From IMG/VR virus record IMGVR_UViG_3300000101_000019, positions 1-52,835 of that record: a DNA stretch of 52,835 bases; one strand, written 5' to 3'. The notes beneath the pieces are model-generated. The model was not told the origin of the DNA. It saw only the letters and a program-made list of their open reading frames with translations, and searched no databases. Both the position numbers and the translations under genes were made by a program. This stretch comes from a virus. Positions 18,743 through 49,167 of this stretch are shown here, piece after piece. Each line of letters starts with the position of its first letter. Positions within the stretch are counted from its first letter, which is position 1.

Positions 18743-19062
18743 TGGACTTACACCAGAGAACTTTAGCATTAATGGAACAGCTAGACAACTTAACAAATAA
18801 ATTTGATACTGAACAAAAAACCATGCTTAAAGGCATGAGAGAAAAACAAGCAACTAAAGCTGGGTGGACTAGATACAGAGACTGTCAGAAGTTTTTTACT
18901 AATGCTAGAAAAGAACTAAACAGTGCTACTAATGATTGCTTATCAGCAGTTAACAAGCCCAGCATAAGTAAAATTAAAACTATTGAAGCTAGAATACAAG
19001 TATTTGATGATAGCTGGCAAATTGCTAGACAATATAGTATGATTGGATTATTATCAGGATGA
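18742..19062 (+). CDS. Small coiled-coil hypothetical protein
   Basis: A 106-residue, largely helical protein beginning at the ATG at 18742, which overlaps the preceding stop (TGATG). It has heptad-like patterns in LHQRTLALMEQLDNLTNKFDTEQ (two pieces, about 3-24) and ISKIKTIEARIQVFDDSW (about 77-94), with a basic middle. No family recognised. Coupling to the UvsY-like gene and the following methyltransferase places it at the junction of the recombination and accessory regions. Confidence 0.6.
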   Translation: MDLHQRTLALMEQLDNLTNKFDTEQKTMLKGMREKQATKAGWTRYRDCQKFFTNARKELNSATNDCLSAVNKPSISKIKTIEARIQVFDDSWQIARQYSMIGLLSG

Positions 19063-19826
19063 TTTTTGCAAGTGAACTTGACAGTCATCAGCACAGTTTA
19101 GATACATTAAATCGCTTAAACAGTCATTATGACTTTAAAATAAGTGTTGGAAGTGTTCTAGATGTAGGTTGCGCTACAGAGCTCATGGACCTAAGGTACT
19201 GGGCTAATTTAACGGACGAGCTTAATGCAAATGAGCCTAACAAGTCTTTAAACATAAATTGTGTTGGGTTAAGCAATCTAGACATTCCAAAACCAACTGA
19301 AAAAAATATTAAATTTAGAAAGCAGGACTTCAACGTTGATCATGGCTTTGGTAAATTTAAAACTCAGTTTGATGTAGTATGGTGTCATGATGTAATGCAG
19401 TATAGCTGGAGTCCAATTTGGTTTTTAAACAATATTAACCAGGTTATGTCAGATGGAGCAATGCTTTATTTGTGTGTTCCTAGTACTGTTAATGTACTAT
19501 ATAATCAGTTTACTAGTTATACGCCTAGTCATTGCTATAACACGTTTACAATAACACAAATACTTTATTTGTTAGCACTGAATGGCTTTGAGATCAAGGA
19601 TTTCCATATAAAGAAAGAGCCTTTTGTAGACATAATTGAAGCAGTTACTTATAAAAATACTGAACCATTGGACTATAATACTACGTGGTATGACTTAATG
19701 GAAAAAGATTTGCTATCAGATAGTATGGCAGAGATTGTACAACGTAACGGGTATCTTACTAATCAAGGCCTTATTAGCAAATGGTTGGATGGTACTGTAT
19801 ATGACTATCGATACGAAGCTAGATGA
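19059..19826 (+). CDS. Class I SAM-dependent methyltransferase
   Basis: A 255-residue protein with a Rossmann methyltransferase core. VGSVLDVGCATELMDLRYW (about 31-48) is the SAM-binding motif I, NINCVGLSNLDI (about 66-77) fits motif II, FDVVWCHDVMQYSW (about 107-120) motif IV, and GAMLYLCVPS (about 134-143) the later strand. It resembles UbiE/type-11 methyltransferases that act on small molecules or sugars. The substrate is unknown. It opens the accessory cassette and overlaps both neighbours by four bases. Confidence 0.75.
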   Translation: MIFASELDSHQHSLDTLNRLNSHYDFKISVGSVLDVGCATELMDLRYWANLTDELNANEPNKSLNINCVGLSNLDIPKPTEKNIKFRKQDFNVDHGFGKFKTQFDVVWCHDVMQYSWSPIWFLNNINQVMSDGAMLYLCVPSTVNVLYNQFTSYTPSHCYNTFTITQILYLLALNGFEIKDFHIKKEPFVDIIEAVTYKNTEPLDYNTTWYDLMEKDLLSDSMAEIVQRNGYLTNQGLISKWLDGTVYDYRYEAR

Positions 19827-20686
19827 GAATAACACACTTTCCAAATAACTTACCAACTAACCAAAATCTTGTATATCCACAACTAATTAACGCTATTAAA
19901 TCAACAGACGAACTTGTTGAAAGTGACTGGGATGCTGATGTTGCACTGATATGGAGCGTACTCTGGTTTGGCAAAATGAGTGCTAACAAACGAGTATGGG
20001 AAAAGTTTCGTGAAGCTGGAAAGCCAGTTATTGTAATTGAAGTTGGTGGTCTAATACGTAACGAAACCTGGAAGTTAGGTATAAACGGAATTAATCGCGA
20101 TGCTGATTTTGCATTAGATTTAGGAATAAACCGTGACAGACTATCCAAATTTAACTTGTCTAAACAACCCTGGGTTATGGGCGATAAGCCTTATATTTTA
20201 GTATGTGGACAACACGCCCATAGTTTACAGTGGGAACACATGCCAGACATGGACACCTACTTTAGAGATACTGTAACTGATATACGCAAGTACAGTGATA
20301 AAACTATAGTACTTAGAGCGCACCCACGTTTTAGGGAAAACGTGCATTTTCCATTAAGTGATCCAGACTGGTACAAGGAACAAAACTGCGAATGGAATAT
20401 TGCTAAACATGTACATAAAACCTATGATAGTTTTGACTTAGAAGATCAGCTTAAAGAAACTTGTATGACTGTAAGTTTTAGTAGTAACGCTGGAGTAAAT
20501 AGTGTTATACAAGGTATACCTACTGTGGTTAGTAAACATAGTTTAGCATGGGATATGAGTAGCACGTATAAAGAGTTTAAGTTTCCGTCCAGAACAAAAT
20601 GGTTGCATACTATGGCTAACATTGAATATTTTCCAGACGAAATTGATATACAGTGGAAACGAATTAGACAAAAGTTAGAGGGATAA
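19823..20686 (+). CDS. GT-B-like glycosyltransferase paralogue 1
   Basis: A 287-residue protein. It shares a pattern with those at 28557, 31507 and 32319: an ITDIRKYSD-type helix followed by a strand with R-x-H/K-P (here TIVLRAHPRF, about 156-165), then near the C-terminus a Ser/Asn turn and a GIP-V motif (VSFSSNAGVNSVIQGIPTVV, about 216-235). This layout fits GT-B-type capsular polysaccharide or glycerophosphotransferase-like enzymes. Donor and acceptor are unknown. It starts in a four-base overlap with the methyltransferase gene. The catalytic call is inferred from fold-like motifs. Confidence 0.5.
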   Translation: MRITHFPNNLPTNQNLVYPQLINAIKSTDELVESDWDADVALIWSVLWFGKMSANKRVWEKFREAGKPVIVIEVGGLIRNETWKLGINGINRDADFALDLGINRDRLSKFNLSKQPWVMGDKPYILVCGQHAHSLQWEHMPDMDTYFRDTVTDIRKYSDKTIVLRAHPRFRENVHFPLSDPDWYKEQNCEWNIAKHVHKTYDSFDLEDQLKETCMTVSFSSNAGVNSVIQGIPTVVSKHSLAWDMSSTYKEFKFPSRTKWLHTMANIEYFPDEIDIQWKRIRQKLEG

Positions 20687-20694: not shown

Positions 20695-21600
20695 ATGCGT
20701 ACAATAGCAGTGTTTAGTACCTGGCATCCAACCGGATATAAAAAGTATGGCAAAGACTTTGTTAAGGGTTTTTTGCAAAACTGGCCCACGGAAGTTAACT
20801 TAACAATATATGCTGAAGATCATGAGCCTGAAACATATAATGCAGATAATATTGAAGTATTAGACCAAGTAGCTACATTGCCTGATTTAAAATCCTGGCA
20901 GGCACGGCACAAAGATAACGACTCAGCACATGGATGGAACAAAGATCATACTAAGAAAAGTTTTTTATGGGATGCTAGTAGGTTTGCTAACAAGGTCTTT
21001 GCCTTATGGCATTTCGCTAAATACACAAAAGCAGATATAATGATCTGGTGTGATGGAGATGTAAGGACCCACACGCCCATGCCTTTCGATTTTTTACAAG
21101 ATATAGCTCCAAAAGAAGATCAACTTGTAACATTCTTAGGAAGAAAGACTTGGCCAGAGTGCGGATGGATGATGTTTAATAGGCATCACCCTGATTTTGA
21201 TAGTTTTATGGATCAGTGGCGATGGATTTACGAAAGTGACGACATCTTTAATCATGTTGAATATCACGATAGTTTTATATTTGGCGAACTAGTACAAGAC
21301 TTTGTTCAGTCAGGAACAGCGGTTAATAATCTTGGTGGCCCTGATCAAGGCGGTCACATTTTTATTAATACTGCTCTTGGAAAGTACATGGATCATCTTA
21401 AAGGGTTCCGTAAGGAAGTAGGCAAAAGCCTGGCTGGAGATCTCACCGGACAATTCAATCATCACGATAACCCATGGTGGCAAGACGTACGACAAGTCAC
21501 AAAGGCAGAGATACGTGCAGAAAAAATGAAGAAGCCGCATGAGTATGATGTGGAACAACAACAAAAATCAGGCGGCTTACAAAAAAAATGGAAAGATTAA
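20695..21600 (+). CDS. GT-A-like glycosyltransferase
   Basis: A 301-residue protein. A DxD-type motif occurs in ADIMIWCDGDVRTHTPMP (about 113-130), preceded by FANKVFALWHFAKYT. The region GRKTWPECGWMMFNRHHPDF (about 149-168) and YHDSFIFGELVQD (about 190-202) fit sugar-nucleotide-dependent GT-A enzymes of phage accessory regions. The acceptor is unknown. The spacing of eight bases from the upstream gene suggests co-transcription. It directly precedes the fibre-like gene, so glycosylation of that protein is possible but unproven. Confidence 0.6.
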   Translation: MRTIAVFSTWHPTGYKKYGKDFVKGFLQNWPTEVNLTIYAEDHEPETYNADNIEVLDQVATLPDLKSWQARHKDNDSAHGWNKDHTKKSFLWDASRFANKVFALWHFAKYTKADIMIWCDGDVRTHTPMPFDFLQDIAPKEDQLVTFLGRKTWPECGWMMFNRHHPDFDSFMDQWRWIYESDDIFNHVEYHDSFIFGELVQDFVQSGTAVNNLGGPDQGGHIFINTALGKYMDHLKGFRKEVGKSLAGDLTGQFNHHDNPWWQDVRQVTKAEIRAEKMKKPHEYDVEQQQKSGGLQKKWKD

Positions 21601-21619
21601 ATCAAAGGAATCAATTGAT

Positions 21620-23470
21620 ATGAGCGCAGAACAAGATAAAGCCAATGCTCAGGCTAGAAAATCACAAGAGGAGCAAAAGAAGTCACAAGCGGAGAGTCAA
21701 AAGCATCAAGCTGAGTTGCAAGAACAATCCGCTAACCAAAACAAAGCAGCAGCACAGTCTAAGCAAGAAGCCGCCGCCACTCAACAAAAACAAGCAGAAG
21801 CAGATGCTGCTAAAGCACAAGCTGACCATGATGCAGCCGTTGCAGACGAACAGCAAAAAGCAGACGAATATGCGGCGGCCCAAGCACAAGTTGCTCAGTC
21901 TGCTGCAATGGTCGAACAAGTTAGTAAACCACAATATACAGTTTCAGTAGGCGCACACGTTGCAACTGCGGTTGCTCAACAAGTAGGAAATGACCAAGCA
22001 GGAGCAAGTTATGAAGCAGAAGCTCATGCAGGTGCTGAAGCAGGCGCAAGTGCTGGTTATGAAGTAACTGATCATAGTGTTGCGGCAGGGGCAGAAGTTC
22101 ATGCTAGCGCAGAAGCAGGGGCAAGCACAAGTGGTGAAGCACATGCTGAACAAGAACTTGCTCCTGGTCTTACAGCCCACACAAGTGCTGAAGGTACTGC
22201 TGAAGCACATGCTAGTGCAGAAGCAGAAGCACACGCTGAAGGCAGTGCAGGCTGGGACGGAAGTGATGCAACTGCGGCTGCTGACATTGGAGCAAGCGCA
22301 AGTGCAGAAGCTGGTGTAAGCGGAAGTGTTGATGCTGAAGTTGGTCTAGATACACCACTAGGTGATGTTAGTGTAGATGCTGGTGCAGACGGTGATGCCA
22401 GCGTACACGCAGAAGCATATGCAGAAGCTGGTGCTCATGCAAGTGTAGGTGAACATGGAGTTGACGTAGGTGGCGGTGCTATTGCCGGTGCAAACGTTGG
22501 CGCCGGTGCAGAAGGATCTGCTCACTTAGGTGGCGCAGAAGTAAGTGCAGGTACAGAAGTAAGTATCGGTGCACAGATTGGTGCTCAAGGCTCTGCTCAT
22601 GCTACATACGAAGATGACACAATCTCGTTTGGTATTGACGGACAAGCGGCTTTGCTAGTTGGACTAGATGTTGACGTAAATGTTGACATTGATATTGGCC
22701 CACTAGTTGACGGTGCTAATGCAATCTTAGATGCAGGCGGAACCATTGATGAAGCAATGGATCATGTTACAGATGGAATTGACAAAGCACAAGACGAAGC
22801 AATTAAAGTTGCTAAAGAAGCAGAACAAACAGCAAAAGACGTTGCTATAGTTGCAGACAAAGCATACAAAGGTGCTCAGTCAGCAGTTGTGTCAACAGAG
22901 CAAGCAGCCAATGATGCCGCTAAAGCATGCACCCAGGCCGCAAACGAAGTTGCACACTGGGGTAATGAAGTAGCAAACTGGACAAACCAAGCGTTTAGTG
23001 CTAAAAGCGTGGCTAATGCTGCTAGCAGTACTATTAATGCTTGTAATGGAGCGATTAACGATTGTAATAACGCTATTAATAGTGCAACAAAAGCAATCAA
23101 TGATGCCGCGGCAGCAGCTCAGAAAGCTGCCGAACAGGCCGCCGCCGCGACAGCTAAAGCCGCTAAAGATGCGGCAGATTGGTCTAAGAAGGCTGCTAAA
23201 GATACTGGCAAAGCGTTTAAGAAAGCGTTTAAGTGGAGTGACAGTAGACTTAAAGCAAATATCGAGTTTGCTTATGCTCATGAAGATATGAACGTATATA
23301 CATACAACTATATCTGGAGTAAAGAACTTGAAAAAGGCGTAATAGCCCAAGAATTACTTGAAACAAAATATGCTGATGCAGTAGAAATGCATGAGTCAGG
23401 ATATTATCAAGTAGACTATAATAGGTTACCACCACTTGAAGAAGCTACTACCTCTATTATAGAGGTATAA
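21620..23470 (+). CDS. Ala-rich fibre-like protein with C-terminal S74 chaperone domain
   Basis: A 616-residue protein with AAGGA before the ATG. Residues about 1-85 are a Gln/Lys/Ala coiled coil. About 100-340 are Ala/Gly/Glu/His-rich and repetitive (AGAEVHASAEAGAS type). About 370-530 are a second Ala-rich helical region. The C-terminal 75 residues match the S74 intramolecular chaperone: SDSRLKANIEFA with the self-cleaving Ser, YTYNYIW, KGVIAQELLE, and YYQVDYNRL. S74 domains trimerise fibres and adhesins and then cut themselves off. It is likely a tail fibre, whisker or decoration protein. It has no known receptor-binding module. Confidence 0.72.
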   Translation: MSAEQDKANAQARKSQEEQKKSQAESQKHQAELQEQSANQNKAAAQSKQEAAATQQKQAEADAAKAQADHDAAVADEQQKADEYAAAQAQVAQSAAMVEQVSKPQYTVSVGAHVATAVAQQVGNDQAGASYEAEAHAGAEAGASAGYEVTDHSVAAGAEVHASAEAGASTSGEAHAEQELAPGLTAHTSAEGTAEAHASAEAEAHAEGSAGWDGSDATAAADIGASASAEAGVSGSVDAEVGLDTPLGDVSVDAGADGDASVHAEAYAEAGAHASVGEHGVDVGGGAIAGANVGAGAEGSAHLGGAEVSAGTEVSIGAQIGAQGSAHATYEDDTISFGIDGQAALLVGLDVDVNVDIDIGPLVDGANAILDAGGTIDEAMDHVTDGIDKAQDEAIKVAKEAEQTAKDVAIVADKAYKGAQSAVVSTEQAANDAAKACTQAANEVAHWGNEVANWTNQAFSAKSVANAASSTINACNGAINDCNNAINSATKAINDAAAAAQKAAEQAAAATAKAAKDAADWSKKAAKDTGKAFKKAFKWSDSRLKANIEFAYAHEDMNVYTYNYIWSKELEKGVIAQELLETKYADAVEMHESGYYQVDYNRLPPLEEATTSIIEV

Positions 23471-24043
23471 GTGCAAAAGGTAGACTTATATCGAGTACAG
23501 TATTTGACTGGGTGTTTTGAAAAAGTAAACACCCAGTCGATTGCTCTAAAGGTATTAAAAAAATATTACGCTAAAAAAAATATGAGTGACAGCGTTCACA
23601 GTATTCGTCATGAAGACATTAGAATAGATTTTGATAGCGAAATACAGGATCTAGGACAACTACAGATAAACGCATGGAAAAATGCATATGGTGATGACAT
23701 TGAATGGTGCTGGGATAGTACTATGACAGAAGACGATCCAAATACAGCAGCCTGGGCAGTAGTTCATGGAAAAGGAGAATCAACTAACTTACATTCCCAT
23801 GAAACAGAAGACAACTACTCTGGCGGAGCTCATGTAAGTAGTGCGTTTTGGGTACAATGCCCGCCAGACAGTGGAGACTTTGTCTTTCAATATAAAACTA
23901 ACCCTTATAATACTGAACAGCATGAAATTACACCTAAAGTTGGCCATTTCGCTATGTTTGACAGTACCCTTCCGCATTATGTTACTAAAAACTTTACAGA
24001 CCAATTACGTATTGTTATTAGTATGAATTTTAAACTGGTATAA
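23471..24043 (+). CDS. Putative 2OG-Fe(II) oxygenase (phage type)
   Basis: A 190-residue protein starting at a GTG immediately after the fibre stop. The C-terminal half has NLHSHETEDNYSGGAHVSSAFWV (two pieces, about 102-123) with an H-x-H metal-binding pair, then KVGHFAMFDSTLPHYVTKN (about 157-175) with the distal His, and LRIVISMNF (about 180-188) with the oxoglutarate-binding Arg. This matches the putative 2OG-Fe(II) oxygenase family frequent in T4-like cyanophages. These enzymes hydroxylate proteins or small molecules. The substrate is unknown. Its contact with the fibre gene hints at a virion substrate. Confidence 0.7.
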   Translation: MQKVDLYRVQYLTGCFEKVNTQSIALKVLKKYYAKKNMSDSVHSIRHEDIRIDFDSEIQDLGQLQINAWKNAYGDDIEWCWDSTMTEDDPNTAAWAVVHGKGESTNLHSHETEDNYSGGAHVSSAFWVQCPPDSGDFVFQYKTNPYNTEQHEITPKVGHFAMFDSTLPHYVTKNFTDQLRIVISMNFKLV

Positions 24044-24134: not shown

Positions 24135-24905
24135 ATGGAAAATATAAGCGTATTGCAAAATCTTCATACTGTCTTTAATCATCCTTATCCTCATATTTGT
24201 ATTGAGGATGCGTTGCCTGATAGTGTGTATGATGAATTAGAGGACACTTTTCCAGAAGAATTAGTTACTAGTACACAACCACACGACAATGGGATATGTT
24301 ATAGATATAAAGCAAACCCTGCGCTAGTGGATAAAGTAATCCCACAAATTTGGCAAGACTTTTTTGAGTATCACACAAGCAAAGAGTATTTCTTACAATG
24401 CATTAATGCTTTTGAACCGCATATTGAAAAAAGATATCCAGACTTATTAGAAAAGTTGTATGCTGGCACTGTAGCTATACGTGATGTTGATAAAGATGGA
24501 GACTACGTAACTGATTGTCAGTTTGTAGTACATGAGCCTGTGGATCAAACAGGAACTAGTCGAACTCCACACATTGATAATCCAGTGGAAATATATGCTG
24601 GACTGTTATATATGCGTAAACCCGGAGATGAAAGTGCTGGTGGTAACTTTACTATCCATGAATGTACTGGAGAAATTGTTCAAGTAAACAAAACACTGGG
24701 CAGACAGGTAGACGATAATTTACATACTCCAATTAAACAAGTACCATACAAGCGTAATACATTTTGTATGTTCTTAAATGTGCTAGGAAGTGTGCATAGT
24801 GTTACGCCACGTATTAACCCTGAGCATCGTAGACATAGTATTAACATTATTGGAGAGTTTAACGGCACTGGCAAGATGTGGAAAGTTAAAGAAATTAAAA
24901 GTTAA
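24135..24905 (+). CDS. 2OG-Fe(II) oxygenase (prolyl-hydroxylase-like)
   Basis: A 256-residue protein. TPHIDNPVEIYAGLLYMR (about 138-155) carries the H-x-D metal pair. VPYKRNTFCMFLN (about 202-214), then SVHSVTPR (about 218-225) with the distal His, and RRHSINIIGEF (about 232-242) complete the double-stranded beta-helix signature. The family oxidises peptides, sugars or lipids. This protein is distinct in sequence from the oxygenase just upstream. Its stop overlaps the next ATG. GGAAG about eight bases upstream supports the start. The substrate is unknown. Confidence 0.72.
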   Translation: MENISVLQNLHTVFNHPYPHICIEDALPDSVYDELEDTFPEELVTSTQPHDNGICYRYKANPALVDKVIPQIWQDFFEYHTSKEYFLQCINAFEPHIEKRYPDLLEKLYAGTVAIRDVDKDGDYVTDCQFVVHEPVDQTGTSRTPHIDNPVEIYAGLLYMRKPGDESAGGNFTIHECTGEIVQVNKTLGRQVDDNLHTPIKQVPYKRNTFCMFLNVLGSVHSVTPRINPEHRRHSINIIGEFNGTGKMWKVKEIKS

Positions 24906-26128
24906 TGAAAGACAACAGATATGCTATCGGTAAAAGCAGTGGTGTTTTCATTAATGAAGATTCTGTTGTTAAGATATTTAATATTCGAAACAAAGGTATT
25001 AAAGCTGCTCGCGGAAGTTATGAGTTATGTTGGCTTAGAGAAGTAGAATGTTTAACTAGACTAGAAGGGCAAATACACTTTCCGCAGATCCTAGAACATC
25101 ACAAAGATCATCTTGGTCTTAGAATGACAACTGTTGGAGAAAGTTTATTTGACACCTGGCAAGAACATAATTTAAAGCTGTATATCGATCAAGCACATAC
25201 TATTGCAGATTCACTTGAAGCGGCAAATATACAATATTTTTACCCAGGCATGGATCCTGCAAGTAAAACAAAACAGTACACAAAGTTTCCTTTAAGTAAT
25301 TTTTGTATTGAAGATGGAGAAATAAGTTTAATAGATTACGAGTTAGCAAATCCGGTTGGTGGTAAATCTGAACCACAAATGAGCGATAGACTCAGATATC
25401 TATATGATAATTATAATAAAGACCATTTTAGACAATCACTGATTAACGCCTTGGAAAATCCGCAGGAGTGTTATCAGTCTGAATTAATGGCTAAGTTGGT
25501 TGACAAGGATAAGTTTCCTATGTTAGCATCAAAGAACCCTAGAGAGGTATGGAAGTCAATGACAGCATTTACACAACCCAGCGAAAAAATTGTTAAAGAA
25601 TGGAAGCGTTACCAAAAACGCTACGGTATCAATGATGCAACTGATCGTGTTGAACGTATGAAGCTCAGTGAAGTATGCAAGCCTGAAGATAAGTTGCTCG
25701 ACATCGGCTGTAATGATGGTTACATTACTATGTTAGTTGCTCCAATGGTTGCAAGTGCAACTGGAGTTGAACCACATGTAGAGTTACCTAGAACAAAACC
25801 CAGTAATGTTAAGTGGATAAAATCAACATTTAACGAGTTCCTAGAGGACACATACAAGCAATATGATGTACTATTAAGCCTGGCAGTTAGCATTCAGTTA
25901 CGTGATTTTGGCGGACTTACTGAACAAGAAATTGTAGATGGATATGCTAGTCTATTAGTACCCGGTGGCATTGTTGTACACGAAACGCAGAAACTCCATG
26001 AACGGCCAAATAATCAGGAACACACTGCTAACATGTTGGATGCATTTGCTACTAAGTTTGAGCAAATTGATCACGGTAACGCAAGACCCAGCGGAGGTCG
26101 CGAGTACTATCATTTTAGGAAAAAGTAG
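24905..26128 (+). CDS. Kinase-fold / methyltransferase fusion
   Basis: A 407-residue two-domain protein. The N-terminal half resembles a small-molecule or protein kinase: an SSGVF loop (about 10-14), SVVKIFNIR (about 20-28) with the likely ATP-binding Lys, LREVECLTRL (about 46-55) with the paired Glu, and LSNFCIEDGEISLIDYELANP (about 129-149) with catalytic-loop Asn and metal-binding Asp. The canonical H/R-D is missing. From about residue 250 it is a class I methyltransferase: LLDIGCNDGYITML (about 264-277), GVEPHVELP and a later LLVPGGIVVHE strand. The combination suggests phosphorylation and methylation of one substrate. The substrate is unknown. Confidence 0.6.
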   Translation: MKDNRYAIGKSSGVFINEDSVVKIFNIRNKGIKAARGSYELCWLREVECLTRLEGQIHFPQILEHHKDHLGLRMTTVGESLFDTWQEHNLKLYIDQAHTIADSLEAANIQYFYPGMDPASKTKQYTKFPLSNFCIEDGEISLIDYELANPVGGKSEPQMSDRLRYLYDNYNKDHFRQSLINALENPQECYQSELMAKLVDKDKFPMLASKNPREVWKSMTAFTQPSEKIVKEWKRYQKRYGINDATDRVERMKLSEVCKPEDKLLDIGCNDGYITMLVAPMVASATGVEPHVELPRTKPSNVKWIKSTFNEFLEDTYKQYDVLLSLAVSIQLRDFGGLTEQEIVDGYASLLVPGGIVVHETQKLHERPNNQEHTANMLDAFATKFEQIDHGNARPSGGREYYHFRKK

Positions 26129-30815: not shown

Positions 30816-30836
30816 TGTTTGTGGATAAGATATATC

Positions 30837-37500: not shown

Positions 37501-37513
37501 GTTTAAAACTCCT

Positions 37514-41190: not shown

Positions 41191-41208
41191 AAAATATCTC
41201 CTAAGTTG

Positions 41209-42713: not shown

Positions 42714-42719
42714 CCAATT

Positions 42720-42842
42720 CTAAGAAAAAACATACCAAAAAATTGCAGAAACAGCAATTATATCAGCACAAATACTCCATACAATGTATGCTTTAAATGC
42801 CCATGGCGCCATGGACTTTACTAGGTTCTGGGTCTTCAGCAT
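42720..42842 (-). CDS. Tiny single-span membrane protein (40 aa)
   Basis: A 40-residue frame with GAGGGG seven bases before its ATG at 42842. A hydrophobic segment (IVWSICADIIAVSAIFWYVF, about 20-39) occupies the second half, with a basic N-terminus (MLKTQNLVKSM) that would stay inside. It sits between the divergent promoters A and D. Function unknown; the hydrophobic profile and ribosome binding site are the only support. Confidence 0.45.
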   Translation of the reverse strand: MLKTQNLVKSMAPWAFKAYIVWSICADIIAVSAIFWYVFS

Positions 42843-42914
42843 CGCAAGACCCCTCTAAAGTTTGTAAAAAAATCATAATTTATGCCTTTTTTTGTTGATA
42901 TTTATCCTTTCTGG

Positions 42915-42942
42915 TTGACCATAGATAAATTTGTGTTACTCT
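42915..42942 (+). promoter_or_regulatory. Early promoter-leader module, copy D
   Basis: TTGACC (42915-42920), 16 bases, then TACTCT (42937-42942), with TGT just before it. The downstream ATGTATAGTTAAACAACAC matches copy A. The -10 is weaker than in the other copies. The gene it serves starts at 42974 with GGAG upstream. Confidence 0.6.
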
Positions 42943-42973
42943 ATGTATAGTTAAACAACACGGAGCGAAAAGC

Positions 42974-43267
42974 ATGGCATTTGCGGCAGAAACAACTTAC
43001 TTTGACAAGGGCGATTCCAGCATAATCGGGTCATTTTTTGAGAAAGACCACGGACATTTGTTTGAGTTTAGCGAAAACCGTGAAGAGTGGAACACAGACT
43101 ATCCACATAAAGTTTGGGTAACAACACCTTGGCACATGGATTGTGGATGGCGTTTTGCCAAAGTGTTAAAGACTGTTGTATATGTTCTTACTAATGATGA
43201 GGACGGCAACGATGTCGTTGAGAAATGGGATATTAAAAACCAGAAAGAATATTCCAGAAACGGTTGA
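42974..43267 (+). CDS. Small hypothetical early protein (97 aa)
   Basis: A 97-residue acidic protein rich in aromatic residues, e.g. FFEKDHGHLFEFSENREEW (about 22-40) and WVTTPWHMDCGWRFAKVLKT (about 47-66). No family recognised. Its stop overlaps the -35 of promoter copy B. T4-type phages carry many such small early genes that retarget host functions; the position under an early-type promoter suggests similar use. Confidence 0.62.
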   Translation: MAFAAETTYFDKGDSSIIGSFFEKDHGHLFEFSENREEWNTDYPHKVWVTTPWHMDCGWRFAKVLKTVVYVLTNDEDGNDVVEKWDIKNQKEYSRNG

Positions 43268-43291
43268 CGTTTGCTGTACCTGTGTTATTAT
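43264..43291 (+). promoter_or_regulatory. Early promoter-leader module, copy B
   Basis: TTGACG (43264-43269), 16 bases, TATTAT (43286-43291) with an extended -10 TGT. It begins a 50-base stretch (43278-43327) identical to copy C. Confidence 0.75.
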
Positions 43292-43330
43292 ATGTATAGT
43301 TAGAGAAAACGAAACAAAGGACCAAATGAA

Positions 43331-43567
43331 ATGACGCATACAAATAAAGTAGAAATTGGAACAAACTTAACTGGTAACTGGGGCGGATATATGCCGTTAT
43401 CGTTGGGCGTAGTTACTGCTATTAATGGCGATACATGTACTGTTAAATGGGACGACATGGGCGATGCAAAGTATGAGATTTCAGAGTTAAAGTCCGCTTT
43501 GTTAACTGCTGACGAAGTTAACAGCAGTACTTACCACCGCACTATTGGTGTTTGGATTGAAGATTAA
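43331..43567 (+). CDS. Small hypothetical early protein (78 aa)
   Basis: A 78-residue protein. The pattern VEIGTNLTGNWGGYMPLSLG, VVTAINGDTCTVKWDDMGDA (about 28-47) and KYEISELKSA looks like a small SH3-like beta barrel, with a T-x-x-W/K-W-D-D strand typical of such folds. No family recognised with certainty. AAAGGA is eight bases before the ATG; a short ATG-AAA-TGA at 43326 precedes it and would stop at once. Confidence 0.6.
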   Translation: MTHTNKVEIGTNLTGNWGGYMPLSLGVVTAINGDTCTVKWDDMGDAKYEISELKSALLTADEVNSSTYHRTIGVWIED

Positions 43568-43579
43568 TTTAAAAAATGG

Positions 43580-43607
43580 TTGACTAATACTCGACCTGTG
43601 TTATTAT
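43580..43607 (+). promoter_or_regulatory. Early promoter-leader module, copy C
   Basis: TTGACT (43580-43585), 16 bases, TATTAT (43602-43607), extended -10 TGT, followed by the same leader as copy B. The gene starts at 43647. Confidence 0.75.
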
Positions 43608-43646
43608 ATGTATAGTTAGAGAAAACGAAACAAAGGACCAAATAAG

Positions 43647-43895
43647 ATGATTAATTATGTAGATGCTCAAGACGGTGGAATTAAAATGTTTTACGGCGAA
43701 GGTCGTGGAAGCAAAGGCCAATTTAAAGACTTTGTTTTTGGTACAACTCCTGAAGAACTTGCCAAGCACATGACAGAGATTGGTCTCGCAGAAACAGTTA
43801 TGGGTGGTAGCAGCATGGACTTCGCTAGCGAAGAAGGTTTTGATACTGATGATGGTGCTCAGCTTCTTCTTAAACGTGCATTTGAGTTAATATAA
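43647..43895 (+). CDS. Small hypothetical early protein (82 aa)
   Basis: An 82-residue protein. MINYVDAQDGGIKMFYGEGR starts a beta-rich N-terminus, TTPEELAKHMTEIGLAETVM (about 32-51) is helical, and the C-terminus is acidic (EEGFDTDDGAQLLLKRAFEL). No family recognised. The stop overlaps the next ATG (TAATG), so it forms a three-gene coupled unit with the next two genes. Confidence 0.6.
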   Translation: MINYVDAQDGGIKMFYGEGRGSKGQFKDFVFGTTPEELAKHMTEIGLAETVMGGSSMDFASEEGFDTDDGAQLLLKRAFELI

Positions 43896-44068
43896 TGATC
43901 AGGTATGAAGTTAAGACTCCACATAAGTCCTTTGTAGGCTGTGAGAGCACCATTGAAGAAGCAACCGATTATATTGCTTCCCTGGTAGATGCTGGTGTTG
44001 AAATTCTTAAAGTAGAGTATTTTGACCGTGATGAACGAGTTGATGCTATAAGGAAAGGTTTAGTTTAA
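43895..44068 (+). CDS. Small hypothetical early protein (57 aa)
   Basis: A 57-residue frame coupled at both ends by TAATG junctions. IRYEVKTPHKSFVGCESTIE (about 2-21) and EATDYIASLVDAGVEILKVEY (two pieces, about 22-42) give a small alpha/beta protein ending DAIRKGLV. It resembles a short antiparallel strand-helix fold with no catalytic residues. Unknown function. Confidence 0.62.
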   Translation: MIRYEVKTPHKSFVGCESTIEEATDYIASLVDAGVEILKVEYFDRDERVDAIRKGLV

Positions 44069-44337
44069 TGACGATGTTATTTCAGTGCTTTGGACGAAAT
44101 CGTGAGACTGGAGAGATGTTAGAAAATCCAGTTTATGTTAACGCTACATCAGTTGATCATGCATTTGATATACTTGATGAAATGCTTGGTCATGCGGTGC
44201 AATGGAAATCAGTTCACGTCGAAGGTGATTGGATAACATGGAACGACGTTAAACCGCCCCATCAACGCTGGGACGCTATGATGGACGCAATGTCAGACAG
44301 AAAAAAAGGTTTGAATCCAAACTTGATGGGAAAATAG
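44068..44337 (+). CDS. Small hypothetical early protein (89 aa)
   Basis: An 89-residue protein. FQCFGRNRETGEMLENPVYV (about 5-24) and SVDHAFDILDEMLGHAVQWK (about 29-48) are followed by VEGDWITWNDVKPPHQRWDA (about 52-71). No family recognised. Its TAG stop (44335-44337) is included in the left arm of the inverted repeat downstream, so RNA folding there could affect translation termination or message stability. Confidence 0.6.
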   Translation: MTMLFQCFGRNRETGEMLENPVYVNATSVDHAFDILDEMLGHAVQWKSVHVEGDWITWNDVKPPHQRWDAMMDAMSDRKKGLNPNLMGK

Positions 44338-44489
44338 TTGTTTAGTATGCAACCGTGTAGGAGATTAATAGAAGACGTGCTCACTTGATCGTTGACTATT
44401 ATATTAAGCAAGGCACTTGGCCCAGATGGCTTTAATCTTATATTGTTAACTAACAAATGCCGGTTGGTGCGGTTGCATTCTAAACAACT
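44336..44489 (+). ncRNA. Candidate structured RNA bounded by a 20-base inverted repeat
   Basis: The left arm at 44336-44355 and the right arm at 44470-44489 are complementary at 19 of 20 positions. They would close a 114-base interior. The interior has a second complementary pair (GATTAA at 44363-44368 with TTAATC at 44432-44437) and a duplicate CGGTTG (44461-44466) that could compete with the right arm. No open reading frame or tRNA consensus is visible inside. It may be a noncoding RNA, a long-range terminator, or a structure controlling the ATPase gene downstream. The arms are directly visible; the function is unknown. Confidence 0.5.
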
Positions 44490-44506
44490 AAAAGATAAAT
44501 TTTTGA

Positions 44507-44534
44507 TTGACTATATAGCAGAATCTGCTATTAT
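44507..44534 (+). promoter_or_regulatory. Early promoter module, copy E, for the AAA+ gene
   Basis: TTGACT (44507-44512), 16 bases, TATTAT (44529-44534). The leader is longer and differs from copies A-D, with a very strong GGAGGAG ribosome binding site before the ATG at 44575. Confidence 0.72.
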
Positions 44535-44574
44535 GTATGAGTAAGTTAAATTAACGCTTGGAGGAGCAAACAAC

Positions 44575-45627
44575 ATGAACTACGTTCTTATTAAGTCAGG
44601 TACATACCAAAAGTTGCAAGTTGCTGACAAGGTATTCCCTGTAATCAAGGAATTTAAGACTGGCGCCCGTGGATCTTACATCACTGTGGATGGTACTATC
44701 CTTGGTAGCGACTATGCTCGCCCAGTTCGTATTAAATGCACAAAAGCAGACATTGTAGATGTTGAGCAAGATGCATATGATCGTCAACTTTCCGCAGAAG
44801 CAGTTAATAAAGATATTAAGACTGCTGGCGATTTAGACAGCTTTACTACAGAACAAGATGAAAAGCGGATGCAAGAAATTGAAGACCGTTTTGAAATCTT
44901 AAATGAAATGACTGGCGCTCTTAAGAGTGGCGATATCCGTGCAATGATTGTAACGGGCCCTCCAGGTGTTGGCAAGAGTTACGGTGTTACACAGACTCTT
45001 GAAGAGCAAAGCATCTTTGAAGATGTTGCTAGTCACAAACGCAAGTTTGAGGTTGTCAAAGGTGCAATGACTGCACTGGGCTTGTATGCTAAATTGTATG
45101 AGTTTAGCGAAAAAGGCAGCGTACTAGTATTTGACGATTGCGATAGTGTGCTAATGGACGATTTAGCCCTTAACATTCTTAAAGCCGCATTGGACTCAGG
45201 CAAAAAGCGCAAGATCTTTTGGAACGCAGATTCATCTAAGTTACGTAGTGAAGGTATTCCTAATAATTTTGAGTTTAGAGGTACTGCTTGCTTTATTACT
45301 AACATTAAGTTTGAAAACGTACGGAGCCGCCGTTTGCAGGATCACTTAGAAGCTCTGCAATCACGTTGCCATTATCTGGATCTTACACTGGATACGATGC
45401 GTGACAAGTATCTTCGCATTAAACAGATTGCACGTACTGGTAAATTATTTGGTTCTGACTACGGATTTACTCCAGAGCAAGAGCAAGAAGTCCTGGACTT
45501 CATGTTTGAGAATCGTAACAAGCTCCGTGAAATGAGCCTGCGTATGGCCCTTAAAGTTGCAGATCTCAAGAAGATCTCAGACAAGTGGCGTGTACTTGCA
45601 GAATCAACTTGCATGAAACGAGCATAA
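44575..45627 (+). CDS. AAA+ family ATPase
   Basis: A 350-residue protein. Walker A is GPPGVGKS (128-135), Walker B VLVFDDCDSVL (about 182-192), and a sensor-like CFITNIKFENVRSRRL region (about 239-254) contains an Arg pair. The N-terminal 60 residues form a separate beta-rich part, and a DEKRMQEIEDRF helix precedes the ATPase. The C-terminal part is helical. It is more like a DnaA/Cdc48-type AAA+ protein than the clamp loader. It may remodel a replication or host complex. The strong ribosome binding site predicts high expression. Confidence 0.78.
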   Translation: MNYVLIKSGTYQKLQVADKVFPVIKEFKTGARGSYITVDGTILGSDYARPVRIKCTKADIVDVEQDAYDRQLSAEAVNKDIKTAGDLDSFTTEQDEKRMQEIEDRFEILNEMTGALKSGDIRAMIVTGPPGVGKSYGVTQTLEEQSIFEDVASHKRKFEVVKGAMTALGLYAKLYEFSEKGSVLVFDDCDSVLMDDLALNILKAALDSGKKRKIFWNADSSKLRSEGIPNNFEFRGTACFITNIKFENVRSRRLQDHLEALQSRCHYLDLTLDTMRDKYLRIKQIARTGKLFGSDYGFTPEQEQEVLDFMFENRNKLREMSLRMALKVADLKKISDKWRVLAESTCMKRA

Positions 45628-45739: not shown

Positions 45740-46369
45740 ATGAAAAAAGTAGCTCTAGGCGATAGTTTTACATACGGAGAGGAATTAGCTGATAGGAATA
45801 ATGCATATCCAGCATTGCTTGGATATGAAAACTGGGGATTAAAAGGTGCCAGTAATGAATATATCTTTCGTAAGGCTGTTGAACTAGCACCAAAAGCAGA
45901 TAATATGATAATAGCCTGGAGTGACAGCGGGCGTTATGAGCTATACACTAATAAAAAAATAAATATATCTAACAGATACATTCAACATAACGGCATAGTA
46001 CAAGTTAATCCAGGATGGACCCAACTAAGTCCATGGTTTAAAGAATTGTACGGCAACTATAGTGATCAAGAACACCAGTTCTTAAAAACAATATCTTACA
46101 TGGTTGCAATTCAAGACGTACTAATGGTTAATAACGTAGATTATATACAAACATCTAGCTTTGGTAACCAAGATTTATTTGTAAAGTACCAGGACAGTGA
46201 TTTAATTAAGCCCTGGATTGCTAGGCTAGATAAGACTAAGTATATAGACTATCCCCATGGATTAGTAGAATGGGCATACGGAACACCGCAAGGACCAGCT
46301 GGACATCCACTTGAGGAAGGACATCAACAGATTGCAGAACAAATCAGAAAATATCTTACAGATCCCTGA
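45740..46369 (+). CDS. SGNH/GDSL hydrolase-like protein 2
   Basis: A 209-residue protein. KKVALGDSFTYGEEL (about 2-16) has the nucleophile Ser9, YENWGLKGASNEYIFRKA (about 30-47) the Gly/Asn blocks, and GPAGHPLEEGHQQIAEQI (about 187-204) the C-terminal His. A matching nearby Asp is less certain. Family members deacylate or acylate glycans or lipids. It overlaps the radical SAM gene that follows. Compared with SGNH protein 3 (48547) it shares the MIIAWSDSGRYELYT-type block after the second strand (there IVWTEHARYELPY). Confidence 0.65.
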   Translation: MKKVALGDSFTYGEELADRNNAYPALLGYENWGLKGASNEYIFRKAVELAPKADNMIIAWSDSGRYELYTNKKINISNRYIQHNGIVQVNPGWTQLSPWFKELYGNYSDQEHQFLKTISYMVAIQDVLMVNNVDYIQTSSFGNQDLFVKYQDSDLIKPWIARLDKTKYIDYPHGLVEWAYGTPQGPAGHPLEEGHQQIAEQIRKYLTDP

Positions 46370-47507
46370 GTTTAATTCTGAGGCTGAGTGTGAGCAATGG
46401 TTAAAAGACAATCCTTACTACTGCGCCAAGCCATTTTACAGTAGAGAGCTTACACAAACCAATGAATCTATTTGGTGTTGTCACTGGGGTAGTCCTTTTA
46501 AGACAATAGATGAACTTAACAGTTACGATAAAACTGTTTTTAAAAAAGATCAGCCTATATCAGATTGCAGTTATTGTTATAAGATTGAAGAGTCTGGAAC
46601 TACTAGTGAAAGATTTACGGACAGTTTATATGCACTGGTACATCAACGAGATTGGCTTGACAACACAGACGTTAAAAGTTTAAAACTCAGGTTAGATAAT
46701 GTATGTAACGTATCTTGTCAAATGTGTAATGCAAACAATAGCTCGTTGTATGATAAAGTAACAGGCGGTAATGTAGGCATCATTGGATTAAATGATCAAA
46801 TTTGGAAAGCAACTTTAGAAGACTTAAAATCAGCAGATATATTATCATTACTAGGCGGTGAAACTTTCCTCTCGCCTAAAACAGAAATTATTTTAAATGC
46901 AGAGCATAGTCTTAAACAAGTTCAGTTTCAAACAAATTGCACTGTTTATAAAAAAAATATTCTAGATTACCTTAACAGAGTACCCAGTGTAGATTTTGGT
47001 TTAAGCATTGATGGTGTAGGAGTAGTTAACGAGTACACTAGATGGCCCAGTAAGTGGGATAAAATTAAACGTAACGTAGAACGATTCTTCCAGTACAATT
47101 TTAACTTTATAGGTTCTCCGGTAGTAAACATTTATACTGCCCTATATTTAGATGAACTAGTAGAGTTTTACTATCCATATATGAAAGATGGTGTGGACAT
47201 TATTATTACTCCGTATTTTTGTATAGAGCCTGAGTGGATGGATATGAGTATCTTACCTGCAAATGCATTAAATGCAATTGAACAGAGATCCATTAAGTTG
47301 TTGGATCATCCAGTTATAACTGAATTTCCATTACAAACAACAGGATTGGTGGAAAGTTTAAATAGTATTATTAACGTTTGTCAAAACTCATTGCCTAATC
47401 CTGACACCTGGGATGAGTTTGTAGTTAATAATGCTATGTGGGATAAAATCCAAGATACTAGTTTTAAAGATAGTTTACCAGAGTTATATAGTTTAATATA
47501 CGCATGA
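46332..47507 (+). CDS. Radical SAM protein (twitch/SPASM type) 1
   Basis: A protein of about 391 residues. I place the start at the TTG at 46332, which has AGGAAGGA about nine bases upstream; a TTG at 46311 would extend it by seven residues. The iron-sulfur motif DNVCNVSCQMCNANNSS gives C-x3-C-x2-C near residue 130, followed by LSLLGGETFLSPK and a FGLSIDGVG barrel strand. The N-terminal 100 residues contain several Cys (YYCAKPF, IWCCHWG, DCSYCYK). Its length and N-terminal Cys region differ from the rSAM at 29859. The stop overlaps the next start by four bases. Confidence 0.72.
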   Translation: MQNKSENILQIPEFNSEAECEQWLKDNPYYCAKPFYSRELTQTNESIWCCHWGSPFKTIDELNSYDKTVFKKDQPISDCSYCYKIEESGTTSERFTDSLYALVHQRDWLDNTDVKSLKLRLDNVCNVSCQMCNANNSSLYDKVTGGNVGIIGLNDQIWKATLEDLKSADILSLLGGETFLSPKTEIILNAEHSLKQVQFQTNCTVYKKNILDYLNRVPSVDFGLSIDGVGVVNEYTRWPSKWDKIKRNVERFFQYNFNFIGSPVVNIYTALYLDELVEFYYPYMKDGVDIIITPYFCIEPEWMDMSILPANALNAIEQRSIKLLDHPVITEFPLQTTGLVESLNSIINVCQNSLPNPDTWDEFVVNNAMWDKIQDTSFKDSLPELYSLIYA

Positions 47508-48550
47508 AATTTTTAAACATACCAGATATTCAGCAAGTAAACGTAGAGATATCTAGTCATTGCAATGCCGCTTGTCCATTATGCACTCGTAATTATAACG
47601 GGTACGGAGTAAGAGATAACTTTCCTTTACGAGATATGACACCAGCTGAATTTAAACATTTGTTAGATCCAGTGTTACCTAACTCAAACATTCTTATACA
47701 TTTTTGCGGAACGTATGGTGACCCTGCAGCTAATAAACACTGTCTAGACATATTAGAGTATGCATACTCAAGAAATCCAAAACTAAGACTAATGTTGAGC
47801 AGTAATGCTAGTATGAAAACACCAGCATGGTGGGCAAAATTTGGTAAGTTTCCAGATCTTAAAATTGAGTTTGCACTAGACGGACTTGCAGATACTCACA
47901 GCATTTATAGGCAGAATACAGATTGGCACAAGGTCATTGAAAACGCTACGGCATTTATTGAAGCAGGCGGGTATGCTATATGGCAGTTTATATCATTTGA
48001 ACATAATAAACATCAACTTGAAGAATGTAAGATTCTTTCTAAAAAACTAGGGTTCTCTGAGTTTAAAAGTTTTGACGATAACAGAGCAAATGCCCTAGCT
48101 TTTACTCCTGACGGAACACCGTTTGTGCTGGGAGATCAACCTCAAAATATTATTACAGCTAACGAGTTTGTAGCTCAAGAAAAGTATCTACAAAAACAGT
48201 ATGAACTAAACTATCAGTTTCAGCAGGAGCGTGGCCTTAAGGTAGACAGCATTGACTGTTATAGCCAAAAAGGAAATATCTATGTTGCTGTTAATGGTGA
48301 TATATGGCCTTGTTGCTGGTTGGGTGGTACATTTCCTATGACCAGTGACAGTGACAACGGATGGCAACTTAAAAAACTTCCCCTTGTGCTTAATGGTTTA
48401 GAAAATAGTTTAGAAGAAGTTATTGCTAGTTGGAATTATATCAGTGACACCTGGAATACTGAAGAGCCATTAAGCACCTGTGTTAAGATGTGTGGAAAAT
48501 GTAATACTTACTCTGGCATGCAACCTGTTGGAGTTAGGTCAATATTATGA
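47504..48550 (+). CDS. Radical SAM protein with SPASM domain 2
   Basis: A 348-residue protein. The iron-sulfur motif is C-x3-C-x2-C at Cys20, Cys24 and Cys27 (SSHCNAACPLCTRN). LIHFCGTYGDPAAN (about 64-77) is the glycine-rich motif; FALDGLADTHSIYRQNT (about 124-140) is a barrel strand with the polar residues usual for substrate contact. The C-terminal SPASM region has IDCYSQKGNIYVAVNGDIW (about 247-265), CCWLGG (267-272) and VKMCGKCNTYSG (about 328-339). SPASM enzymes typically modify peptides. No precursor peptide gene is obvious next to it. Stops and starts overlap on both sides. Confidence 0.75.
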   Translation: MKFLNIPDIQQVNVEISSHCNAACPLCTRNYNGYGVRDNFPLRDMTPAEFKHLLDPVLPNSNILIHFCGTYGDPAANKHCLDILEYAYSRNPKLRLMLSSNASMKTPAWWAKFGKFPDLKIEFALDGLADTHSIYRQNTDWHKVIENATAFIEAGGYAIWQFISFEHNKHQLEECKILSKKLGFSEFKSFDDNRANALAFTPDGTPFVLGDQPQNIITANEFVAQEKYLQKQYELNYQFQQERGLKVDSIDCYSQKGNIYVAVNGDIWPCCWLGGTFPMTSDSDNGWQLKKLPLVLNGLENSLEEVIASWNYISDTWNTEEPLSTCVKMCGKCNTYSGMQPVGVRSIL

Positions 48551-49167
48551 AACTTTTAACTAACGGCTGTAGTTTTACACAGGGCATATATGATAACTTT
48601 GAAGAGAAGAACGCCTGGCCCTATCAGTTAGGAAAACTACTAGACTGGGATGTGGCAAATCTAGCTGAAGGAGGCGGCAGCAATGCTAGAATATTCCGTA
48701 CTACCATGGAATACCTTTTAGATAATACACCAGACTATGCAGCTATTGTGTGGACAGAACATGCAAGGTATGAGCTTCCTTATCATACTGGAGATATCAT
48801 ACGTGTTATGCATAGTATGGCATTGCCTGAGCAAGACGAAACTGTAGATGATATTCCTGAACTTAGAGAGTTTTGGTACAAGCATTGTCATAATGAACTT
48901 GCATCTCAGCAAAGAACAGTGTATTATATAAGATGTATAAAGATGATACTAGAGGGTAAGTCTATTCCATATACTATGAGTTCTAGTTTTAATATAGATA
49001 TCAATGAACCCTTTAGCAATTGGTTATGTCCGGGATCTAGTATGCAAACAGAACTAGCTCACTTACCTAAAGCAGATATCCATGGTCATCCTGGTATAGA
49101 AGGACAAACATTGTGGGCAAATTTAATGTTAGAGAGTATAAATGAAACCTTGCGTACTGCACGTTAA
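48547..49167 (+). CDS. SGNH/GDSL hydrolase-like protein 3
   Basis: A 206-residue protein. The nucleophile block is LLTNGCSFTQGIYD (Ser9; GCS instead of GDS), VANLAEGGGSNARIFRTT (about 36-53) holds the Gly/Asn blocks, and KADIHGHPGIEGQTLWANL (about 175-193) the Asp/His pair. The replacement of the usual Asp by Cys in GDS is common in O-acyltransferase-like SGNH proteins. The start overlaps the radical SAM stop and its end overlaps UvsW by 26 bases. Likely glycan or lipid esterase or transferase; substrate unknown. Confidence 0.65.
   Translation: MKLLTNGCSFTQGIYDNFEEKNAWPYQLGKLLDWDVANLAEGGGSNARIFRTTMEYLLDNTPDYAAIVWTEHARYELPYHTGDIIRVMHSMALPEQDETVDDIPELREFWYKHCHNELASQQRTVYYIRCIKMILEGKSIPYTMSSSFNIDINEPFSNWLCPGSSMQTELAHLPKADIHGHPGIEGQTLWANLMLESINETLRTAR

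What the first reader, a model, noticed from the sequence alone, without database searches (positions are those of the whole stretch)
19059..49167. A large phage-encoded surface-chemistry cassette
Between recombination genes lie four GT-B-like and five other glycosyltransferase-like proteins, four methyltransferase domains beyond replication needs, four radical SAM enzymes, three SGNH proteins, two 2OG-Fe(II) oxygenases, two kinase-fold proteins and one sugar-activating fusion. Most neighbours overlap by 1-8 bases, indicating coupled translation. Known families make this look like assembly and decoration of a glycan, on the virion fibre or the host envelope. No sugar nucleotide pathway is complete, so it would draw on host precursors. 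The target is inference.
Basis: partly seen in the sequence, partly recalled or inferred. Interest (0 to 1): 0.8.

Follow-up and report, generated by a model that had tools for sequence, protein, structure and literature searches.

The report
Late-expressed phage sugar-coating gene island
A stretch of a marine virus of bacteria carries a variable, late-switched set of sugar-attaching and sugar-tailoring enzymes, found at the same spot in many related viral fragments, which probably coats the virus's own particles (or else the infected cell's surface) with a custom glycan.

Summary
The finding holds, with corrections. The window belongs to a 55.6-kb IMG/VR record of a marine T4-like myophage related to jumbo phages. 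Between uvsY (18284-18742) and uvsW (49142-50599) lie about 25 genes of glycan chemistry: 19059-40582, then 45740-49167. An early DNA-metabolism block separates the two parts. All 17 related intervals examined carry variable genes at this site; named relatives lack them. Shared core: a cytidylyltransferase-cupin fusion (g41, 15/17), a GT8/WbbM-like transferase (g42, 14/17), a DxD protein (g23, 13/17) and a paralogous GT-B family (g22/g30/g34/g35; 57 members in 14/17). The GT-B model (pTM 0.86) matches retaining beta-Kdo transferases KpsC/WbbB/KrkA, although no window copy keeps both catalytic signatures. New evidence on timing: T4-type late promoters precede g41 (35/61), g22 and g23, as they do tail and terminase genes, but almost never uvsX/uvsY/uvsW (2/316). 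A predicted virion protein (g24) travels with oxygenase g25. Cultured Caulobacter phage CcrColossus has homologous transferases between its tail and lysis genes. I favour late virion glycosylation (about 0.5) over envelope modification (about 0.35). Glycosyltransferase-rich phage islands are known, so this is a new variant.

The parts
18284..18742 (+). g19 UvsY-like recombination mediator: left anchor of the variable site; perfect sigma-70 promoter at 18249-18277
   Evidence: PHROG 231 E=3e-13; promoter 12/12
19059..19826 (+). g21 methyltransferase
   Evidence: Methyltransf_23; 6/17 intervals
19823..20686 (+). g22 GT-B paralogue, keeps RxHP motif, QHAHS instead of QxxxD
   Evidence: family of 57, motifs
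20695..21600 (+). g23 transferase-like core protein with conserved DxD
   Evidence: 13/17 intervals; invariant D120 and D122; no database hit
21539..23470 (+). g24 predicted virion protein, Ala-rich, C-terminal S74 chaperone; likely starts at a later ATG (MSAEQDK)
   Evidence: Peptidase_S74, PHROG 6121 virion structural protein
23471..24043 (+). g25 2OG-Fe(II) oxygenase, travels with g24
   Evidence: 2OG-FeII_Oxy_5 E=4e-10; pair in L292 and L294
24052..24059 (+). late promoter octamer TATAAATA before g26
24135..24905 (+). g26 2OG-Fe(II) oxygenase-like
   Evidence: below cut-off; related genes in several relatives
24905..26128 (+). g27 kinase-like domain + methyltransferase fusion
   Evidence: Methyltransf_23; fold search Ark1/Bud32 and NodS
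26129..26941 (+). g28 methyltransferase
26953..28560 (+). g29 radical SAM with B12-binding-like domain
28512..29483 (+). g30 GT-B paralogue, QKNND motif kept, HP lost; true start probably 28557
   Evidence: model pTM 0.86; KpsC/WbbB/KrkA fold; motifs
29859..30815 (+). g32 radical SAM-SPASM
30819..31526 (+). g33 SGNH-like
   Evidence: weak GDSL; motif
31507..32319 (+). g34 GT-B paralogue, both Kdo-transferase motifs lost
32319..33236 (+). g35 GT-B paralogue, both motifs lost
33237..34325 (+). g36 unknown; kinase-fold claim not confirmed
   Evidence: no Pfam or PDB hit
34322..35362 (+). g37 unknown, possible glycosyltransferase
   Evidence: no hit; conserved in G001 and G002
35342..36106 (-). 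g38 GT8-like transferase
   Evidence: PHROG 1962 glycosyltransferase E=3e-13; weak GT8 profile hit E=0.023
36099..36479 (-). g39 cupin
   Evidence: Cupin_2 just below cut-off
36709..37500 (-). g41 cytidylyltransferase-like + ManP-isomerase-type cupin fusion; most conserved core gene
   Evidence: bacterial homologues
37514..37521 (+). late promoter octamer TATAAATA before g42
37577..38272 (+). g42 GT8/WbbM-like transferase (trimmed start)
38269..39300 (+). g43 GT61 glycosyltransferase
   Evidence: PF04577 E=8e-11
39296..39303 (+). late promoter octamer TATAAATA before g44 (39341-39898)
39899..40582 (-). g45 methyltransferase, late-type motif 12 nt before its start
40906..45627 (.). NOT part of the island: DNA ligase, small genes, AAA protein with early-type repeated promoters
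45740..46369 (+). g54 SGNH-like
   Evidence: weak hit and motif
46311..47507 (+). g55 radical SAM
47504..48550 (+). g56 radical SAM, SPASM-like C-terminus
48547..49167 (+). g57 SGNH-like (DUF6071)
   Evidence: E=3e-8; motif
49142..50599 (+). g58 UvsW-type helicase: right anchor
   Evidence: PHROG 16 E=6e-77

Best explanation
The region is a variable glycan-assembly island at a fixed site (uvsY-uvsW) of a group of marine T4-like myophages. Shown: gene content, site conservation, rearrangement, purifying selection, and late-promoter motifs. Inferred mechanism: late in infection g41 activates a phosphorylated sugar or polyol drawn from the host; transferases g22, g30, g34, g35, g38, g42, g43 and probably g23 build a short oligosaccharide; methyltransferases, the kinase-methyltransferase g27, SGNH proteins and radical SAM enzymes tailor and cap it. 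Because expression is timed with tail and packaging genes, the most likely acceptor is a virion protein made at the same time; in this phage the S74 protein g24, possibly hydroxylated by its partner oxygenase g25, is the best candidate. Rapid turnover of transferases would then change the particle's exterior between relatives.
For: Fixed site and core: 17 intervals; 74 of 80 best g42 loci lie beside uvsX/uvsY/uvsW and 62 of 80 beside a GT-B member. Named relatives lack the island between uvsX-uvsY and uvsW. Late timing: motif NNTAAATA[CT] within 60 nt upstream in 35/61 g41, 14/31 g22, 18/64 g23 (shuffled expectation 4.0, 1.6, 2.9), like tail tube 5/5 and terminase 16/34, versus uvsX 2/144, uvsY 0/145, uvsW 0/27. 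Strict TATAAATA runs 50:6 with the locus orientation. The only two perfect sigma-70 promoters in 14.5-34 kb precede uvsX and uvsY. Fold: the GT-B family matches KpsC/WbbB/KrkA. Virion links: g24 is S74/virion-structural; the g24-g25 pair recurs in two other phages; CcrColossus gp127-gp129 lie between tail proteins and endolysin/holin. Selection: dN/dS 0.04-0.36. No flippase, polymerase or initiating phosphoglycosyl transferase found by Pfam.
Against: No glycan has been seen on any virion of this group. g24-g25 sits in the island only in this lineage (window and G001), so it cannot be the general acceptor. Late timing does not exclude envelope modification. In the window g20-g23 directly follow sigma-70-driven uvsY with no late motif, so part may be expressed early. 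Sequences in the promoter counts are related, not independent. The enzyme families are best known from O-antigen and capsule synthesis.
Confidence: 0.5

Rival explanations
1. The enzymes modify the infected cell's LPS or capsule, for example to exclude competing phages or to stop progeny re-adsorbing to dying cells and debris.
For: Proposed in the literature for GT-rich islands of pelagimyophages (PMC7029224) and of jumbo/cyanophages (PMC7824862). The GT-B fold is that of capsule/O-antigen Kdo transferases; the g42 profile hits WbbM. SAR86 homologues of g41 sit beside wzz and nucleotide-sugar genes.
Against: Late promoters leave little time for superinfection exclusion before lysis, though they would suit release of progeny. 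No membrane glycan-export genes found by Pfam. A predicted virion protein with its oxygenase sits inside the island here.
Confidence: 0.35
2. The enzymes make a small metabolite or modify a peptide (radical SAM/SPASM, oxygenases, methyltransferases) rather than a surface glycan.
For: Four radical SAM proteins, SPASM matches and two oxygenases. A halogenated sugar/amino-acid metabolite was proposed for a second cyanophage cluster (PMC7824862).
Against: The conserved core across relatives is transferases plus a nucleotidyltransferase; the radical SAM genes of the first part, g29 and g32, are absent from the 16 other intervals except in the near-identical G001.
Confidence: 0.07
3. The transferases glycosylate phage DNA bases to resist restriction, as in T4.
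For: Phage GT-B enzymes that glucosylate DNA are well known (established knowledge); 2OG-Fe oxygenases and methyltransferases are present.
Against: No thymidylate synthase/dCMP hydroxymethylase family gene in six virus contigs of 74-203 kb (contigs incomplete). g25 and g26 match general 2OG-Fe families, not a base-oxidising family. The GT-B fold is Kdo-transferase-like. Late timing is wrong for modifying replicating DNA.
Confidence: 0.05

Closest known systems
Host recognition cluster of pelagimyophages and cyanomyophages (PMC7029224)
   Same: Variable island in marine T4-like phages with several glycosyltransferases and some radical SAM gene cassettes
   Different: That island lies between VrlC and gp14 in the structural region; this one lies between uvsY and uvsW. 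Late-promoter control and a Kdo-transferase-fold family are not mentioned in the passages read.
Capsule/LPS modification clusters of jumbo phages and cyanophages (PMC7824862)
   Same: Paralogous glycosyltransferases with HIGH-superfamily nucleotidyltransferase and cupin; methyltransferases and 2OG-Fe oxygenases in related clusters
   Different: No NAD-dependent epimerase/dehydratase genes found here; nucleotidyltransferase and cupin are fused; fixed uvsY-uvsW site; late-promoter signature
Retaining beta-Kdo transferases KpsC (GT107), WbbB (GT99), KrkA (GT140; PMC12887879)
   Same: Overall fold of the GT-B family; some relatives keep both QxxxD and (K/R)xHP
   Different: Sequence similarity nearly nil; most members, including all four in the window, lack one or both motifs
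Transferase module of Pelagibacter phage Mosig EXVC030M and Caulobacter phage CcrColossus
   Same: Homologous GT-B members in both; a g42-like transferase in both; also g23-like and g38-like genes in Mosig
   Different: Other genomic sites (Mosig: after nrdA/nrdB and ruvC; CcrColossus: between tail and lysis genes); no g41 homologue found there
Virion glycosylation of mycobacteriophages (Freeman 2023, cited in PMC12619734)
   Same: Phage-encoded glycosyltransferases decorating virions: the mechanism favoured here
   Different: There the glycan has been observed on capsid and tail tube; here it is inferred

Membership tests
Pelagimyophage host recognition cluster | Lies between VrlC and gp14 | tested here: not met
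   Lies between uvsY and uvsW in the window and in related intervals
Pelagimyophage host recognition cluster | Several glycosyltransferases, variable between relatives | tested here: met
Pelagimyophage host recognition cluster | Contains tail fibre genes | tested here: inconclusive
   Only g24, an S74 virion-structural protein not shown to be a tail fibre
Jumbo/cyanophage capsule-modification cluster | HIGH nucleotidyltransferase, cupin and paralogous glycosyltransferases | tested here: met
   g41 and the GT-B family
Jumbo/cyanophage capsule-modification cluster | NAD-dependent epimerase/dehydratase genes (complete clusters) | tested here: not met
   None among the island proteins scanned with Pfam
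Retaining beta-Kdo transferases (GT99/GT107/GT140) | Fold | tested here: met
   16 of the 18 Foldseek hits with E<0.001 are KpsC, WbbB or KrkA, TM 0.33-0.52
Retaining beta-Kdo transferases (GT99/GT107/GT140) | QxxxD nucleophile and HP CMP motif in the same protein | tested here: not met
   In no window protein; in 9 of 57 family members
Retaining beta-Kdo transferases (GT99/GT107/GT140) | Transfers Kdo from CMP-Kdo | not testable with these tools
   Needs an enzyme assay
T4-type late promoter | TATAAATA-like octamer upstream of late genes and nearly absent upstream of early ones | tested here: met
T4-type late promoter | Dependence on gp55/gp33/gp45 | not tested
   Late sigma factor was not searched for
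WbdD-type kinase-methyltransferase glycan cap | Kinase-like and methyltransferase domains fused | tested here: met
   g27; domain order reversed relative to WbdD (from memory)
WbdD-type kinase-methyltransferase glycan cap | Sequence similarity to solved WbdD | tested here: not met
   Profile search of the PDB hits only other methyltransferases
Virion glycosylation | Glycan on a virion protein made by these genes | not testable with these tools
   Needs mass spectrometry of virions
Phage DNA base glycosylation | Base-hydroxymethylating enzyme (thymidylate synthase family) in the phage | tested here: not met
   None in G002, G007, G009, G010, G011 or G022 (contigs incomplete)

The most novel reading that the evidence does not exclude
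Marine T4-like phages carry a late-expressed virion glycosylation machine built on a radiation of Kdo-transferase-fold enzymes, most of which have lost the classical nucleophile or CMP motif and so probably use other donors or mechanisms. It would be a tailed-phage counterpart of chlorovirus self-glycosylation, held at a fixed recombination-gene site and reshuffled by gene gain, loss and inversion.
Probability: 0.35. Interest if true: 0.8.

Novelty: new variant of a known kind. Interest (0 to 1): 0.55.

Why it matters
Glycosyltransferase islands are among the most conspicuous unexplained features of large marine phages, and the papers read here assign them to host-envelope change without evidence on timing. 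A late-promoter signature, a linked virion protein/oxygenase pair and homologous genes in a cultured Caulobacter phage turn 'virion or envelope' into a question that can be tested at the bench. If virions are glycosylated, ideas on adsorption and receptor recognition for abundant marine phages would need revision, and a new branch of Kdo-transferase-fold enzymes would be open to biochemistry.

Tried and rejected
(1) Near-identity DNA search of phage records with the first 25 kb: no match. (2) TATAAATA counts within the window alone: not enriched over shuffles (4 found, 6.2 expected); the signal came only from position across relatives. (3) Phase-variable inversion: block g37-g45 is inverted relative to G002, but no convincing inverted repeats bracket it in the window, so an invertible switch was not adopted. 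(4) WbdD membership for g27: no similarity. (5) Kinase fold for g36 and transferase for g37: no hits. (6) DNA glycosylation: no thymidylate-synthase-family gene in the virus contigs. (7) g24 in cultured phages: none. (8) Rfam and tRNA searches: none. (9) Virion proteomics of CcrColossus: the phiCbK genome paper has no mention of glycosyl- or sialyltransferases. (10) Polysaccharide-locus context of g41 in SAR11: in the one SAR11 genome examined (L159) it has no such neighbours, so that argument rests on the SAR86 genomes.
Full report
Identity and setting. The window is bases 1-52835 of a 55,614-base IMG/VR virus record. Tail sheath (g03), tail tube (g04), head closure (g08), terminase (g13), gp32-type SSB (g16), UvsX (g17), UvsY (g19) and UvsW-type helicase (g58) are recognisable, so it is a T4-like myophage. 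UvsX is closest among named phages to Sinorhizobium phage Phosso (469 kb, 69%) and Agrobacterium phage Atu_ph07 (490 kb). A relative with the island lies on a 335-kb contig placed in a Neomarinimicrobiota MAG (L129), so jumbo size is likely. The host is unknown.

The observation. Exceptions: a kinase fold for g36 and a transferase for g37 could not be shown; the SGNH proteins have weak hits supported by motifs. The 40906-45627 segment is not part of the island: it holds a DNA ligase and an AAA protein, with near-identical TTGACn-N16-tgnTATTAT promoter repeats. ORF 36478-36714 (+) is an artefact opposite a real Hc1 histone-like gene. Genes g21-g38 are under purifying selection against the closest relative, G001 (dN/dS 0.04-0.36; g31 gave no comparison); that contig ends in g38, so later genes were not tested.

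The site. Sixteen related intervals were read besides the window (15 spanning uvsX to uvsW, plus G018, whose contig ends first). Every one has extra, variable genes. In Phosso and Vibrio phage 2.275.O, uvsX, uvsY and uvsW lie within about 6 kb with only a few small genes between. Recurrent genes: g41 15/17, g42 14/17, g23 13/17, GT-B family 57 members in 14/17. An independent scan with g42 returned 80 loci, of which 74 lie beside uvsX/uvsY/uvsW and 62 carry a GT-B member. A few phages of the group lack most of the core (G004 has g41 but no g42 or GT-B; G007 has neither). Against G002 the block g37-g45 is cleanly inverted and g29-g33 are extra; g24-g25 occur in the island only in the window and G001.

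What the transferases are. The GT-B family had no Pfam or PHROG hit at the thresholds used. A 50-sequence profile gave WbbB (GT99) as the only solved relative, at a weak E=0.011. The AlphaFold2 model of g30 (pLDDT 85, pTM 0.86) matches KpsC, KrkA and WbbB: 16 of the 18 Foldseek hits with E<0.001. TM-scores are 0.33-0.52, so the relation is distant. Known retaining Kdo transferases carry QxxxD (nucleophile) and an HP motif, usually (K/R)xHP, that binds CMP (PMC12887879). Both occur together in 9 of 57 members by pattern; other subgroups have QxxGG, QHxxS or neither. In the window g30 keeps the first motif and g22 the second, so no window protein qualifies as a Kdo transferase by motif. g42 matches WbbM and, weakly, GT8; g38 is a PHROG glycosyltransferase with a weak GT8 hit; g43 is GT61; g23 has a conserved DxD but no database hit.

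Donor supply. g41 joins a glycerol-phosphate/ethanolamine-phosphate/LPS-core type nucleotidyltransferase to a ManP-isomerase-type cupin. Full-length relatives exist in SAR86 and SAR11 genomes. In three SAR86 loci it lies near wzz, UDP-sugar dehydrogenase, epimerase or nucleotidyltransferase genes; in the one SAR11 genome examined it does not. No complete nucleotide-sugar pathway or export system appears in the island by Pfam.

Timing. Strict TATAAATA is rare and strand-biased (56 in 1.03 Mb, 50:6); where present it typically sits 13-19 nt before the g41 start. With the relaxed motif NNTAAATA[CT] within 60 nt upstream: tail tube g04 5/5, second tube g05 6/7, terminase 16/34, g41 35/61, g22 14/31, g23 18/64; uvsX 2/144, uvsY 0/145, uvsW 0/27, gp32 0/97. 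In the window such motifs precede g03, g04, g05, g10, g12 on the structural side and g26, g42, g44, g45 in the island, while uvsX and uvsY have perfect sigma-70 promoters. Sequences are related, so counts are not independent events; the contrast between gene classes is the evidence. g20-g23 in the window directly follow uvsY without a late motif and may be expressed earlier.

Target. For the virion: timing; g24 is an S74/virion-structural protein whose partner oxygenase g25 also follows it in L292 and L294 but not in L293; CcrColossus carries two GT-B members and a g42 homologue between tail proteins and lysis genes. For the envelope: enzyme families typical of O-antigen and capsule, and published opinion. 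Against DNA: no base-hydroxymethylating gene found and late timing. My weights: virion 0.5, envelope 0.35, metabolite/peptide 0.07, DNA 0.05.

Novelty. Glycosyltransferase-rich islands in marine T4-like and jumbo phages are published (PMC7029224, PMC7824862), and glycans have been observed on mycobacteriophage capsid and tail tube (cited in PMC12619734). I found no report, in the passages and searches made here, of this site, its late-promoter signature, the Kdo-transferase-fold radiation, or the link to Mosig and CcrColossus. The literature search was limited to open-licence papers.

Noticed in passing
36546-36725 (-): Small Hc1 histone H1-like gene (59 aa, PF07432 E=6e-13) between g39 and g41, conserved in G002; the overlapping + strand ORF 36478-36714 is spurious.
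   Followed up: yes
42664-44534: Repeats of 57-84 nt carrying TTGACn-N16-TGnTATTAT promoters and a shared leader (GTATAGTTAGAGAAAACGAAACAAAGGA) before several small genes: a likely early promoter family of this phage.
   Followed up: partly
upstream of g41 and g13 in many relatives: The late octamer often starts only 13-19 nt before the ATG, so late transcripts may start at or next to the start codon (leaderless) in this phage group.
   Followed up: no
34322-40582 versus G002 interval 13146-19612: The block g37-g45 (about 6 kb) is inverted between the window and a relative with 83% identical UvsX; no convincing bracketing inverted repeats found.
   Followed up: partly
L012, L015, L017, L072, L077: g55-like radical SAM genes also occur between gp32 and uvsX or between uvsX and uvsY in relatives, so these genes spread beyond the island.
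   Followed up: no
L129 (PBPT01000016.1, 335,231 b): A contig binned in a Neomarinimicrobiota MAG carries this phage group's uvsX, island and uvsW: phage DNA in a bacterial reference genome.
   Followed up: partly
L289 gp126, L288 Mosig_00186: The cultured-phage modules also hold a gene annotated as alpha-2,3-sialyltransferase (CcrColossus; only a sub-threshold MptE-like Pfam hit here) and a sulfotransferase (Mosig; PF03567 E=4e-12), hinting at anionic glycans.
   Followed up: partly
39341-39898 (g44) and L294:6342-6812: g44 (late promoter 45 nt upstream, hydrophobic C-terminus) weakly resembles the gene next to g24-g25 in L294 (local score 76, best of 500 shuffles 55), so it may have moved with that pair.
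   Followed up: partly
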